This document shows, in pieces, positions 10,553 through 15,744 of a stretch of 64,000 nucleotides of DNA (position 1 is its first letter; each line of letters starts with the position of its first letter). The translations under genes and the position numbers were made by a program. Below the pieces are notes generated by a model that was given only the letters and a program-made list of their open reading frames with translations, was not told the origin of the DNA and made no database searches. Origin of the DNA: Archangium gephyra (GTDB lineage Bacteria > Myxococcota > Myxococcia > Myxococcales > Myxococcaceae); contig NZ_CP011509.1 of the NCBI RefSeq assembly GCF_001027285.1, positions 2,736,501 through 2,800,500 of the forward strand, read 5' to 3'.

Positions 10553-12877
10553 ATGACTGCGGCGCAAGCCAAACAACCGTTTCAATTGCCAGACTTCTAT
10601 GTGCCCTGGCCGGCGCGCCTGAATCCCCATCTCGAGGGAGCCCGGGTGCACTCGAAGGCGTGGGCGCGAGAGATGGGCATCCTGGAGCCCAAGGATGGGA
10701 CCCCCGATGTCTGGGATGAGGCGAAGTTCGATGCCATGGATTACGCGCTGCTCTGCGCGTACACCCATCCCGAGGCTCCCGGCCCCGAGCTCGATCTGGT
10801 CACGGACTGGTATGTCTGGGTTTTCTATTTCGATGATCATTTCCTCGAGGTCTACAAGCGCTCCAAGGATTTGACGGGCGCGAAGGCCTACCTCGACAGG
10901 TTGCCCGCGTTCATGCCGGTGGACCTCTCCGTCGCGCCGCCGCAGCCCACCAATCCGGTGGAGCGGGGCCTGGCGGATCTGTGGGCGCGCACGGTGCCCA
11001 CCAAGTCCGTGGAGTGGCGGCGCCGGTTCTTCGAGAGCACCAAGAACCTGCTCGACGAGTCGATGTGGGAGCTGGCCAATATCAGCGAGAAGCGGGTCGC
11101 CAACCCCATCGAGTACATCGAGATGCGCCGCAAGGTGGGTGGGGCGCCCTGGTCGGCGGATCTCGTGGAGCACGCCGTCTTCGCCGAGGTGCCGGCCCGC
11201 ATCGCCGACTCCCGTCCGATGCGCGTCCTCAAGGACACGTTCTCCGATGCGGTGCACCTGCGCAACGATCTGTTCTCCTACGAGCGGGAAATCCTGGAGG
11301 AGGGCGAGCTCTCCAACTGCGTCCTGGTCCTCGAGCGCTTCCTGAACGTGGATCCGCCGCGCGCCGCGGAGCTGACCAACGACATCCTCACGTCGCGGCT
11401 GCAGCAGTTCGAGAACACCGCCCTGACCGAGCTGCCCTCGCTCTTCGAGGAGCACGCCCTCAACCCGGTCGAGCGGATGCACGTCCTCTCCTATATCCGG
11501 GGGCTCCAGGACTGGCAGTCCGGCGGGCACGAGTGGCACATGCGCTCGAGCCGCTACATGAACAAGGGCGCCAACAACGCGAGCCACGCCCTGGGCGGCC
11601 TTCCCCTGGGCCCGACGGGGCTGGGCACCTCGGCGGCGCGGCTCCACCTGACTCCTGGCGGACTGGGGCTGGGCCGGTTCAAGAGCTACACCCACGTTCC
11701 CTTCTCGGCCGTGGGCCCGGTCAAGCTGCCGCAGTTCTACATGCCGTACTCGACGCGGCAGAGCGCGCACCTGGACGCCGCGCGGCGCAGTTCCAAGGAG
11801 TGGGCGCGCCGGATGGGCATGCTGGACTCTCTGCCAGGCCTTCCGGGCGCGTGCATCTGGAATGACCACATCTTCGATGTCGCCGACGTGGCCCTATGTG
11901 GGGCGTTGATCCACCCGGCGGCGACGGGCCACCAGTTGGATATCACGGCCTGCTGGCTCGTGTGGGGCACCTACGCGGACGACTATTTCCCGGCGCTCTA
12001 CGGCTATCGAGCCGACATGGCGGGCGCGAAGGTGTTCAACGCGCGGCTGACGGCGTTCATGCCAGATGACCCCGCTGCCCAGACCACCGTCCCCACCAAC
12101 CCGGTGGAGAAGGGCCTGGCGGATTTGTGGACTCGCACCGCCGGCCCCATGTCCGCCGAGGCGCGCAATCACTTCCGCAAGGCCATCCAGGACATGACGG
12201 AGAGCTGGTTGTGGGAGCTGGCCAATCAGATGCAGAACCGGGTGCCGGATCCGGTGGACTACGTGGAGATGCGCCGCAAGACGTTCGGCTCGGATCTCAC
12301 CATGAGCCTGTGCCGGCTGGCCCAGGGCCACGGGCTCCCCGCCGAGCTCTTCCGCACCCGGACGATGCGCGCGCTGGAGAACTCGGCCGCCGACTACGCC
12401 TGCCTCACCAACGACGTCTTCTCCTACCAGAAGGAGATCGAGTTCGAGGGGGAGCTCCACAACGGCGTCCTGGTGGTGCAGCGCTTCCTCGACCTGGACA
12501 AGGCGCGGAGCGTCGAGGTCGTCAATGACTTGATGACCGCGCGGATGCGCCAGTTCGAGCACATCATCAAGACCGAGCTGCCGACGCTCATCACCCACTA
12601 CGGGCTGGACGGGAAGGCGCAGGAGCGGCTGCACGCGTACATCGAGCAGCTCCAGCAGTGGATGGCGGGCGTGCTCATCTGGCACCAGACGGTGGACCGC
12701 TACAAGGAATTCGAGCTGCGCAGGAGCCGGACGCCCGGGCGGTACATGCAACAGCTCCGAGGCCCCACGGGCCTGGGGACTTCGGCGGCGCGCATCGCGT
12801 CACTGCTGAGTGGTCACCGGCCCGGACTGACCGGCCGTGAAAAAGATCGTGTTCTTCAGACTGAAGGAAAGAGGTAG
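10553..12877 (+). CDS. geoA: Geosmin synthase (two-domain terpene cyclase), predicted encapsulin cargo
   Basis: Encodes 774 residues with the bifunctional geosmin synthase layout. In this family the N-terminal domain converts farnesyl diphosphate to germacradienol and the C-terminal domain converts germacradienol to geosmin. N-domain: Mg motif DDHFLE (94-99) and NDLFSYERE (N238, S242, E246). C-domain: DDYFP (476-480) and NDVFSYQKE (N620, S624, E628). The ATG at 10553 is preferred over in-frame codons from 10445 because the start [20 protein letters not shown] matches the usual geosmin synthase N-terminus and GAGGTG precedes it. Each domain is followed by the same 11-residue tag [11 protein letters not shown] (353-363 and 737-747), a candidate shell-targeting signal. 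Its stop codon lies within the ribosome site of the first encapsulin gene, so cargo and shell are tightly coupled. Confidence 0.95.
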
Positions 12878-12880
12878 GCC

Positions 12881-14287: not shown

Positions 14288-14334
14288 GGACGCGGGCGAT
14301 CTGAGTCAGTCCAGACACAGCTGAGGCACAGCTC

Positions 14335-15744
14335 ATGGCGAATACGATGAACACGGGCAGCGGTGGTGGTGAAGTCGAACAGCGGCAGATGAGCCTGGGG
14401 ACGGACGCGGCCCGTCAGTTGGCGACGACGACCAAGTCGCGGCCGCAGATGTTGGGAATCACTCCCAGGTGGCTGCTGCGCATGCTGCCGTGGGTCGAGG
14501 TGCCGGGTGGCGTGTACCGCGTCAACCGTCGCCTGACCTACTCCGTGGGGGATGGGCGCCTCAGCTTCTCCAACGTCGGCGCCCGGGTGGAGGTCATTCC
14601 CCAGGAGCTGCGCGAGCTGCCGCTGCTGCGTGATGTCGACGACGCCGAGGTGTTGTCCGCCCTGGCGTCCCGGTTCGTGCAGCGGGAGTTCAAGCCGGGT
14701 GAGCGGATCGTCGAGGCGGGCCAGCCCGCCGAGCAGGTGATGCTGCTCGCCCATGGCAAGGCCCAGAAGCTGGGCCGTGGCCAGTATGGCGACGAGGTCC
14801 TGATCGAGACGCTCGCCGATGGCGATCACTTCGGGGACATGTCGGTGGTGGAGTCGAATGACCAGTGGAAGTTCACGGTCAAGGCACTCACCCCCTGCAC
14901 AGTGATGATGCTGCCGCAGCGGGTGTTCGAGGAGCTGATCAAACAGTCCGCGGTGCTGTCCGCTCATATCGATCGGATCAAGGAGCGGTTGAGCAAGCCG
15001 CAGGACAAGGCGGGACAGGCCGCCATCCAGCTCGCCGCGGGACACCACGGCGAGCCGGAGCTGCCGGGGACGTTCGTCGACTACGATCTCAAGCCCCGCG
15101 AGTATGAGCTGAGCCTGGCCCAGACCCTGCTTCGGGTGCATACCCGCGTCGCGGACGTGTTCAACGGCCCGATGGACCAGGTGGGGGAGCAGATCCGGTT
15201 GACCATCGAGGCCCTGCGCGAGCGGCAGGAAGACGAGATGATCAACAACCGGGACTTCGGGTTGCTGCACAACGCGGACCTCAAGCAGCGCATCCACGCG
15301 CGCAGCGGGCCGCCCACGCCCGATGACCTGGACGATCTGCTCAGCCGGCGCAAGAAGTCACGGTTCTTCCTGGCCCATCCGCGCACCATCTCCGCGTTCG
15401 GCCAGGAGTGCACCCGGCGTGGGCTCTATCCGCCCATCGTCGAGGTGGAGGGCCGGAAGTTCATCGGCTGGCGCGGTGTCCCGCTGCTGCCCTGCGACAA
15501 GATTCCCATCTCCGAGTACGGCACGACTTCCATCCTCGTGCTCCGGACGGGGAAGGACGATCAAGGCGTCGTGGGCCTGCGTCAGACGGGCATCCCGGAT
15601 GAGGTCGAGCCGGGCTTGTCCGTGCGGCACATGGGCGTCAACGAGAAGGCGGTCTCCTCCCATCTCGTGAGCACCTACTACTCCGCGGCCGTGCTCATCC
15701 CCGACGCGCTCGGAGTCCTGGAGAACATCCAGCTCGGGCGCTGA
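14335..15744 (+). CDS. Family 2B encapsulin shell protein 2 (with cyclic-nucleotide-binding insert)
   Basis: Encodes 469 residues and is a clear paralogue of the preceding shell protein through its whole length, including the arm motif [21 protein letters not shown], the CRP-like insert and the C-terminal '[21 protein letters not shown]'. Differences: a longer Gly-rich N-terminus ([18 protein letters not shown]), and a pocket sequence [14 protein letters not shown] that keeps an FGD resembling the family's FGE, although the canonical phosphate-binding arginine is also missing ([10 protein letters not shown]). Two shell genes beside one cargo gene imply either mixed two-component shells or alternative shells. 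Codon choice is slightly less biased than in the first copy. A hairpin follows 47 bases after the stop. Confidence 0.94.

What the first reader, a model, noticed from the sequence alone, without database searches (positions are those of the whole stretch)
10553..15744. Geosmin synthase encoded with two tandem family 2B encapsulin shell proteins
A complete two-domain geosmin synthase is followed at three bases by one encapsulin gene and 47 bases later by a second, homologous one, with a terminating hairpin after. Family 2B encapsulins with terpene cyclase cargo are known; a dual-shell operon with geosmin synthase as cargo is less usual and predicts a mixed or alternative shell. Seen directly: gene order, overlap, CNB inserts and cyclase motifs. 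Inferred: that geosmin is made inside the compartment.
Basis: partly seen in the sequence, partly recalled or inferred. Interest (0 to 1): 0.9.

Follow-up and report, generated by a model that had tools for sequence, protein, structure and literature searches.

The report
Geosmin enzyme with two-part protein shell
A soil bacterium carries, in one gene row, the enzyme that makes the earthy-smelling compound geosmin and two sister proteins expected to build a tiny protein shell around it; this three-gene set is already described and is the usual arrangement in its relatives.

Summary
A complete two-domain geosmin synthase (GS, 10553-12877) is followed 3 bases later by a Family 2B encapsulin shell gene (Enc1, 12881-14287) and 47 bases on by a second (Enc2, 14335-15744). 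All three exceed curated NCBIfam cut-offs. The hairpin after Enc2 is real, but its T-run lies on the other strand.

The arrangement is not unusual. GS-Enc1-Enc2 stands in 58 of 62 myxobacterial GS loci examined, was published for Cyanobacteria and Deltaproteobacteria in 2020, and fits published two-component Family 2B encapsulins. The window carries both halves of the published Enc1/Enc2 diagnostic motif 1 and both copies of the proposed loading motif [11 protein letters not shown].

Three comparative results go further. (1) A Family 2B shell gene is present in 211 of 212 GS-bearing genomes, many with unlinked genes, against 8 of 678 others (relatedness uncorrected). (2) Unlinked GS keep the motif in at least one copy (40 of 40). 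(3) A single old Enc1/Enc2 split is rejected (AU p 8.9e-5), though motif 1 separates the partners.

Most likely: a mixed-shell compartment that loads GS and keeps its volatile intermediate near the second active site. Assembly, loading and chemistry inside are untested.

The parts
10553..12877 (+). Two-domain germacradienol/geosmin synthase (GS), 774 aa, predicted cargo
   Evidence: NF041168 f2_encap_cargo3 1265.5 bits, cut-off 1200; nearest solved chain 5dw7, germacradienol/geosmin synthase N domain, E 8.7e-153
11609..11641 (+). [11 protein letters not shown] in the linker between the cyclase domains (residues 353-363), proposed shell-targeting signal
   Evidence: published consensus in PMC8346489
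12761..12793 (+). [11 protein letters not shown] near the GS C-terminus (residues 737-747)
   Evidence: PMC8346489
12881..14287 (+). Enc1, Family 2B encapsulin shell protein, 468 aa
   Evidence: NF041163 767.4 bits, cut-off 400; best solved relative 9bje, E 1.1e-194
13220..13483 (+). CNB insert of Enc1 (residues 114-201)
   Evidence: PF00027 E 1.3e-14
13367..13375 (+). YSY in place of FG(D/E) of the phosphate-binding cassette in Enc1
   Evidence: S164 in 59 of 59 Enc1 of the window's family; aligned to E. coli CRP
13526..14281 (+). HK97-type SrpI-like domain of Enc1
   Evidence: PF19307 E 2.1e-136
13883..13894 (+). TVWK, the published diagnostic motif 1 of S. lydicus Enc1
   Evidence: 59 of 59 Enc1; PMC12407261
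14335..15744 (+). Enc2, Family 2B encapsulin shell protein, 469 aa
   Evidence: NF041163 762.3 bits, cut-off 400; best solved relatives 9bhu, 9bix
14683..14946 (+). CNB insert of Enc2 (residues 117-204)
   Evidence: PF00027 E 1.4e-18
14830..14838 (+). FGD retained in the phosphate-binding cassette of Enc2
   Evidence: G167 and D168 in 57 of 57 Enc2 of the window's family
14986..15738 (+). HK97-type SrpI-like domain of Enc2
   Evidence: PF19307 E 5.4e-133
15346..15357 (+). RRKK, Enc2-type diagnostic motif 1 (S. lydicus Enc2: RRRK)
   Evidence: RR in 57 of 57 Enc2; PMC12407261
15791..15817 (.). Strong hairpin after Enc2; T-run only on the minus strand, so not shown to end this operon

Best explanation
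This is a three-gene operon for a geosmin-making encapsulin. GS is translated first; Enc1 and Enc2 are made from the same message and co-assemble into one small HK97-type shell of mixed composition, in which Enc2 can probably close shells alone and Enc1 depends on it, as in S. lydicus. GS is captured during assembly by its repeated [11 protein letters not shown] segments, one in the linker and one at the C-terminus. Inside, the N domain turns farnesyl diphosphate into germacradienol, and the C domain of the same or a neighbouring enzyme turns that into geosmin. Confinement keeps the greasy, volatile intermediate close to C domains, and the CNB domains over the two-fold pores would gate substrate entry, not by cyclic nucleotides. 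Shown here: genes, domains, motifs, conservation, co-occurrence. Inferred: one message, assembly, loading, chemistry in the shell, gating.
For: Family assignments over curated cut-offs. Gene order conserved in 58 of 62 loci. S. lydicus Enc1 and Enc2 co-assemble and Enc1 alone forms no regular shells (PMC12407261); the window pair shows the same diagnostic motif 1 contrast. The proposed loading motif is exact in both places in the window; at 7 of 11 letters or better it is present at least once in 95 of 100 linked, 40 of 40 unlinked and 7 of 7 contig-edge unique GS, while shuffled segments reach 7 in about 0.2% per segment. A Family 2B shell gene in 211 of 212 GS genomes against 8 of 678 others.
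Against: My literature searches listed no assembly or loading experiment with a geosmin synthase. A passage in PMC6428758 says the homologous eshA is not required for 2-MIB biosynthesis, so a shell may be dispensable for the chemistry. S. coelicolor GS makes geosmin in vitro without a shell (recalled). The C-terminal motif reaches 7 of 11 in only 71 of 100 linked GS, and 5 linked GS (L062, L063, L066, L067, L168) fall below 7 in both places, although shells are adjacent. Diagnostic motif 2 of the window pair does not match the S. lydicus letters. Co-occurrence is phylogenetically clumped and was not corrected.
Confidence: 0.72

Rival explanations
1. Two separate homomeric shells, used under different conditions or for different cargo, not one mixed shell.
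For: The paralogs are 63.9% identical and differ most in the CNB. They are old: each forms its own group across the sampled Myxococcota. PMC8346489 could not exclude it (passage).
Against: S. lydicus Enc1 forms no regular shells alone but enters mixed shells. Enc1 and Enc2 are co-directional and 3-51 bases apart in 58 of 58 triples. According to PMC12407261 the motif 1 contrast lies at a protomer interface.
Confidence: 0.15
2. GS is not encapsulated; the shells serve another function or other cargo, and the linkage reflects co-regulation or shared spread.
For: In 20 shell loci from actinobacterial genomes whose GS lies elsewhere or at a contig edge, 15 have a prenyl transferase homologue beside the shell and 2 a 2-MIB synthase-type cyclase, so those shells have other candidate cargo. 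EshA is reported as not required for 2-MIB.
Against: In 58 of 62 loci of the window's family no other gene lies between GS and the two shells. Genome-level pairing holds also when the genes are unlinked. The loading motif is retained.
Confidence: 0.13
3. The CNB proteins are Crp/Fnr-type transcription regulators of geoA, as older cyanobacterial annotation has it.
For: Described as Crp/Fnr-type global regulators in PMC7251104 (passage). The CNB domain is recognisable.
Against: Pfam finds no DNA-binding domain; the C-terminal half is an HK97-type shell domain with solved shell relatives. The column of the CRP cassette arginine (role recalled) holds W in both proteins.
Confidence: 0.02

Closest known systems
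geoA-cnb-cnb geosmin cluster of Cyanobacteria and Deltaproteobacteria (PMC7251104, 2020)
   Same: Same three genes in the same order and similar lengths (758, 471, 469 aa there; 774, 468, 469 here)
   Different: That paper calls the cnb products Crp/Fnr-type regulators; Enc1 of the window's family has YSY where the cyanobacterial Enc1 rows I aligned keep FGD (12 of 12)
Two-component Family 2B encapsulin of Streptomyces lydicus (PMC12407261, 2025)
   Same: Enc1/Enc2 pair, CNB inserts, diagnostic motif 1 (TVWK versus RRRK/RRKK)
   Different: Putative xylulose kinase system there, geosmin synthase here; diagnostic motif 2 letters differ; assembly untested here
Family 2B terpene cyclase encapsulins with GS-like cargo (PMC8346489, 2021; NCBIfam NF041168)
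   Same: GS-like cargo with [11 protein letters not shown] in the linker and at the C-terminus; dual shells
   Different: No difference of substance found
2-MIB synthase / EshA operons of Streptomyces
   Same: Family 2B shell next to a terpene cyclase bearing a related GPxGLGT segment
   Different: In the two loci seen (L244, L246), one shell gene and a one-domain cyclase of 430 and 463 aa

Membership tests
Family 2B encapsulin shell protein | HK97-type shell domain of the Family 2 kind | tested here: met
   By sequence: PF19307 and NF041163 over cut-off for both; solved relatives 9bje, 9bix, 9bhu
Family 2B encapsulin shell protein | CNB domain inserted in the E-loop | tested here: met
   PF00027 at residues 114-201 and 117-204, ahead of the SrpI domain; full NF041163 match 1-450 for both
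Family 2B encapsulin shell protein | Assembly into icosahedral shells | not testable with these tools
   Needs expression and electron microscopy; the AlphaFold models were too poor to use (mean pLDDT 54.9 and 52.7)
Two-component encapsulin | Two Family 2B shell genes within 10 kb | tested here: met
   47 bases apart; the only two over the cut-off in the genome
Two-component encapsulin | Diagnostic motif 1 contrast between Enc1 and Enc2 | tested here: met
   TVWK versus RRKK; published TVWK versus RRRK
Two-component encapsulin | Diagnostic motif 2 contrast | tested here: inconclusive
   The region differs between Enc1 and Enc2 but does not match the S. lydicus letters
Two-component encapsulin | Co-assembly into one shell | not testable with these tools
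   Needs co-expression
Germacradienol/geosmin synthase | Two terpene cyclase domains, each with metal-binding motifs | tested here: met
   PF19086 in two stretches; [15 protein letters not shown] and [14 protein letters not shown] (motif meaning recalled)
Germacradienol/geosmin synthase | Makes geosmin | not testable with these tools
   Needs GC-MS
Family 2 encapsulin cargo (GS type) | Conserved [11 protein letters not shown] in the linker and at the C-terminus | tested here: met
   Exact match at both places; consensus from PMC8346489
Family 2 encapsulin cargo (GS type) | Physical loading into the shell | not testable with these tools
   Needs pull-down or cryo-EM
Crp/Fnr transcription regulator | DNA-binding helix-turn-helix domain beside the CNB | tested here: not met
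   At E 0.01 Pfam finds only PF00027 and PF19307 in both proteins

The most novel reading that the evidence does not exclude
Geosmin synthesis is a shell-bound pathway in nearly all bacteria that have it. GS hardly ever occurs without a Family 2B shell gene in the genome, and where the genes are unlinked, as in the Streptomyces loci seen here, GS is loaded in trans through its [11 protein letters not shown] segment into shells encoded elsewhere, often next to a prenyl diphosphate synthase that could supply farnesyl diphosphate on site. The Enc1/Enc2 interface contrast is kept by selection while the rest of the two paralogs is repeatedly homogenised or re-duplicated within lineages.
Probability: 0.35. 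Interest if true: 0.7.

Novelty: already known. Interest (0 to 1): 0.38.

Why it matters
The locus itself is an ordinary example of a described system. What would matter is the genome-level pairing of geosmin synthase with Family 2B shells in three phyla, also when unlinked: it allows a direct test of whether a common soil odour is made inside protein compartments, and it points to candidate trans shells in Streptomyces, where genetics is easy. The myxobacterial operon, with one GS and two shells side by side, is a compact system for testing mixed-shell assembly and retention of the intermediate.

Tried and rejected
AlphaFold models of Enc1 and Enc2 from alignments of 25 and 21 rows had mean pLDDT 54.9 and 52.7. 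Mainly the CNB part was confident, so no fold search was run and nothing is built on the models.

The idea that the motif marks only shell-adjacent GS was rejected: unlinked GS keep it too, including a second GS-like gene in this same genome (L039). That fits trans loading but also a structural role of the segment. The cut at 7 of 11 letters was my choice.

One old Enc1/Enc2 duplication inherited unchanged was rejected: with the motif 1 columns left out, the label needs 7 changes in the careful tree of 76 rows, 0% of 200 bootstrap trees have one change, and AU p is 8.89e-5. For that tree I dropped 36 of 112 rows: 8 rows of four pairs with a long or odd member (L137, L145, L168, L179), 9 rows from loci with a single or unlinked shell, and 19 near-duplicates. 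The quick tree of all 112 rows needs 9 changes, at least 6 forced by starred branches. Three rows that my pattern left unlabelled were set to Enc2 by eye from their RR. Part trees are weaker: CNB 8 changes, at least 4 forced; HK97 C part 5, at least 2 forced. Gene conversion and repeated duplication were not separated.

The terminator reading of the hairpin is not supported for this strand. No sigma-70-type promoter was found in 10200-16000.

In Myxococcota I counted as GS the contig-truncated G103 and the split G074, and left out G182 (single-domain match). In the family of G221, 2 of the 113 GS genomes (G580, G713) have only an N-terminal-half match. Matches covering only the HK97 part (12 Myxococcota, G378, G849) were not counted as 2B; with them the figures for genomes without GS would be 12 of 134, 2 of 333 and 3 of 144. 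Contig-broken 2B genes were counted (for example G228, G836), as were the weak matches G590 and G622; the match lines were cut off, so there I judged by each genome's best E-value. Genomes within a clade are not independent. The GS genomes of the Myxococcota draw all lie in one family; Polyangium, Sorangium and Nannocystis-type loci came only.
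Full report
What is there. Translation of the window gives a 774-aa geosmin synthase from ATG 10553, a 468-aa protein starting 3 bases after its stop, and a 469-aa protein 47 bases after that. NCBIfam names the first as family 2 encapsulin cargo terpene cyclase (NF041168, 1265.5 bits, cut-off 1200) and the other two as family 2B encapsulin shell protein (NF041163, 767.4 and 762.3 bits, cut-off 400). Pfam finds two cyclase stretches in the first, and a cNMP-binding domain plus the SrpI-like HK97 domain in each of the others. The best solved relatives are 9bje for Enc1 and 9bhu and 9bix for Enc2. 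The aligned letters of 9bje and 9bix contain the S. lydicus Enc1 and Enc2 diagnostic motifs printed in PMC12407261, so I take them as that pair. The cyclase's nearest solved relative is the N domain of a germacradienol/geosmin synthase, 5dw7. The genome (G000, 12,489,432 bases, one contig) holds no other family 2B shell over the cut-off. From recall the size fits Archangium gephyra; no call names it.

How common it is. A search of 193 Myxococcota genomes found GS in 59: 57 over the cut-off, plus G103 at a contig end and the split G074; G182 matched with one domain only and is not counted. I fetched 61 GS loci, not G074, and examined them with the window. GS, Enc1 and Enc2 stand in that order in 58 of 62 (in L082 Enc2 is cut by the contig end). 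Three loci have GS without a shell: L039, the second GS-like gene of this genome (1003 bits, under the cut-off), and second copies in G177 and G185 (L040, L041). L070 ends after Enc1. The GS-Enc1 gap is 3 bases in 9 of 58 triples, measured to the longest ORF start; the Enc1-Enc2 gap is 3-51 bases. Among 80 named loci from genome contigs, 12 of 15 cyanobacterial loci show GS and two shells in that order and the other 3 reach a contig end; actinobacterial loci vary between shells on both sides, one shell, and none nearby.

Literature. PMC7251104 (passages) describes geoA followed by two cnb genes of 471 and 469 aa, with synteny preserved in Cyanobacteria and Deltaproteobacteria. PMC8346489 (passages; section 8 part 1) describes dual Family 2B shells of roughly 60% identity, GS-like cargo, and the [11 protein letters not shown] consensus as a possible targeting sequence. 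PMC12407261 (outline, section 5 part 1, passages) shows a mixed S. lydicus shell and states, citing earlier work, that the Family 2B insert binds no cyclic nucleotides. [quoted passage not shown] The finding is therefore already known in kind.

Enc1 and Enc2 differ in fixed ways. In complete ORFs of the window's family, TVWK is present in 59 of 59 Enc1 and RR followed by K or R in 57 of 57 Enc2. Enc1 has Y-S-Y/F where Enc2 has F/L-G-D (S in 59 of 59; G and D in 57 of 57). Classes were assigned by which window protein scored higher and agree with gene order. Against E. coli CRP (L222), the column of the cassette arginine holds W in both window proteins (the role of that arginine is recalled), in line with the published lack of cyclic nucleotide binding. 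The 12 cyanobacterial Enc1 rows keep FGD. In Sorangium (L124) it is Enc2 that has lost it.

History of the pair. In the careful tree of 76 rows without the motif 1 columns, the Myxococcota Enc2 rows form one group (97/88) and the Enc1 rows another (96/93, with one Kribbella row inside), so the window's pair dates at least to the base of the Myxococcota sampled. Cyanobacterial Enc1 and Enc2 group together (100/98), as do the pairs of Streptosporangiaceae (100/99) and of three Pseudonocardiales loci (98/89), and the Nostoc pairs L118 and L128 are each sisters within one genome. The Enc1/Enc2 label needs 7 changes, also at both the 5% and 95% bootstrap bounds, and holding all Enc1 together is rejected (AU p 8.89e-5). 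Either pairs arose repeatedly and the motif 1 contrast arose with them, or conversion homogenised pairs while sparing motif 1. Both would imply selection on that contrast; this is inference, and the part trees are less decisive.

Genome-level pairing. Family 2B shell genes are present in 59 of 59 GS genomes and 0 of 134 others in Myxococcota; in 13 of 13 and 1 of 333 in an Actinomycetota draw; in 112 of 113 and 5 of 67 in the family of G221; and in 28 of 28 and 2 of 144 in the family of G228; tabulated, with the counting rules given under Tried and rejected. G221 is in two draws, so the distinct total is 211 of 212 GS genomes against 8 of 678 others. The exception, G714, has only a CNB-region match at E up to 1e-8. 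Reading the first 27 genomes in the shell list against by eye, 5 have a listed shell within 10 kb of GS and 22 do not (draft contigs can hide proximity). I also searched the genomes behind 36 named loci without a nearby shell (29 unlinked, one of them a second copy, and 7 with GS near a contig end): 36 of 36 have a 2B match, 35 over the cut-off. Relatedness inflates these numbers and no tree correction was made.

Motif retention. Of 155 GS rows, 147 are unique. At least one copy matching 7 of 11 letters is present in 95 of 100 linked, 40 of 40 unlinked and 7 of 7 contig-edge enzymes; both copies in 64, 15 and 6; shuffled segments reach 7 or more in about 0.2% each. Seven unlinked GS from unnamed actinobacterial genomes lack the C-terminal copy and keep a linker copy such as TGPGTSAAD (L213-L219). 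Five linked GS fall below 7 in both places. The motif is thus not a mark of linkage. It fits trans loading, or a structural role.

Where unlinked shells sit. I took 20 shell loci from 18 genomes of that set (16 with unlinked GS, 2 with GS near a contig end). Fifteen have a prenyl transferase homologue within 300 bases of the shell; the L228 copy is over the NF041169 cut-off. Two have a 2-MIB synthase-type cyclase carrying a GPxGLGT segment (L244 over the NF041167 cut-off; L246 by similarity and motif). Three have neither, two of them with the shell at a contig end (L229, L235) and L241. This speaks against the trans idea in its simplest form, since these shells have other candidate cargo. It is also compatible with a shell that holds both a prenyl diphosphate source and GS; the product of these transferases is unknown.

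Mechanism. I commit to a mixed shell loaded with GS, with gain from holding germacradienol near C domains. Against it stand the reported dispensability of EshA for 2-MIB (PMC6428758, passages) and in vitro geosmin formation without shells (recalled). PMC7251104 (passage) notes that a geosmin synthase expressed in E. coli gave germacradienol and germacrenes but no geosmin, which suits a need for context but does not show it. PMC8549240 (passages) describes separate direct regulators for eshA-mib and geoA in Streptomyces, which is not what a dedicated geoA-EshA partnership would predict.

Whether trans pairing of GS and 2B shells is unreported I cannot say: I searched only an open-licence library, of most hits I saw listings only, and a paper on an encapsulated 2-MIB synthase that I recall was not among the hits and may discuss it.

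Noticed in passing
window 15862-17355 (+) and 17371-18360 (+): The downstream gene resembles the SitA5-family polymorphic toxin model (NF050093, 67.6 bits, under its cut-off of 160) and is followed by a protein with weak HEAT-repeat matches, possibly its partner.
   Followed up: no
L039 8545-10770 (G000:C1 near 10.886 Mb): The same genome has a second two-domain geosmin-synthase-like gene (1003 bits, 53% identical to the window's), with no shell in the 19 kb fetched but both motif copies as GPSGPGTSAAR/GPAGPGTSAAR; its C domain has DDFFF in place of DDYFP.
   Followed up: partly
G580:C27 and G713:C37: A stretch matching only the N half of geosmin synthase, with one in-frame TGA, lies between two Family 2B shell genes.
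   Followed up: no
L115 5732-10277: Microcoleus sp. CAWBG506 has two geosmin-synthase-like genes in tandem before the shell pair.
   Followed up: no
L124: Sorangium cellulosum So0157-2 has the order Enc1-GS-Enc2, and there Enc2, not Enc1, has lost the FGD of the CNB cassette (FTT).
   Followed up: no
L043, L044, L050, L052-L056 and others: In one group of the window's family the C-terminal motif of GS has drifted to forms such as LSGLGMSAMRVAELF while the shells stay adjacent.
   Followed up: partly
window 15791-15817: A strong G+C-rich hairpin whose T-run is only on the minus strand, although the genes on both sides read on the plus strand.
   Followed up: partly
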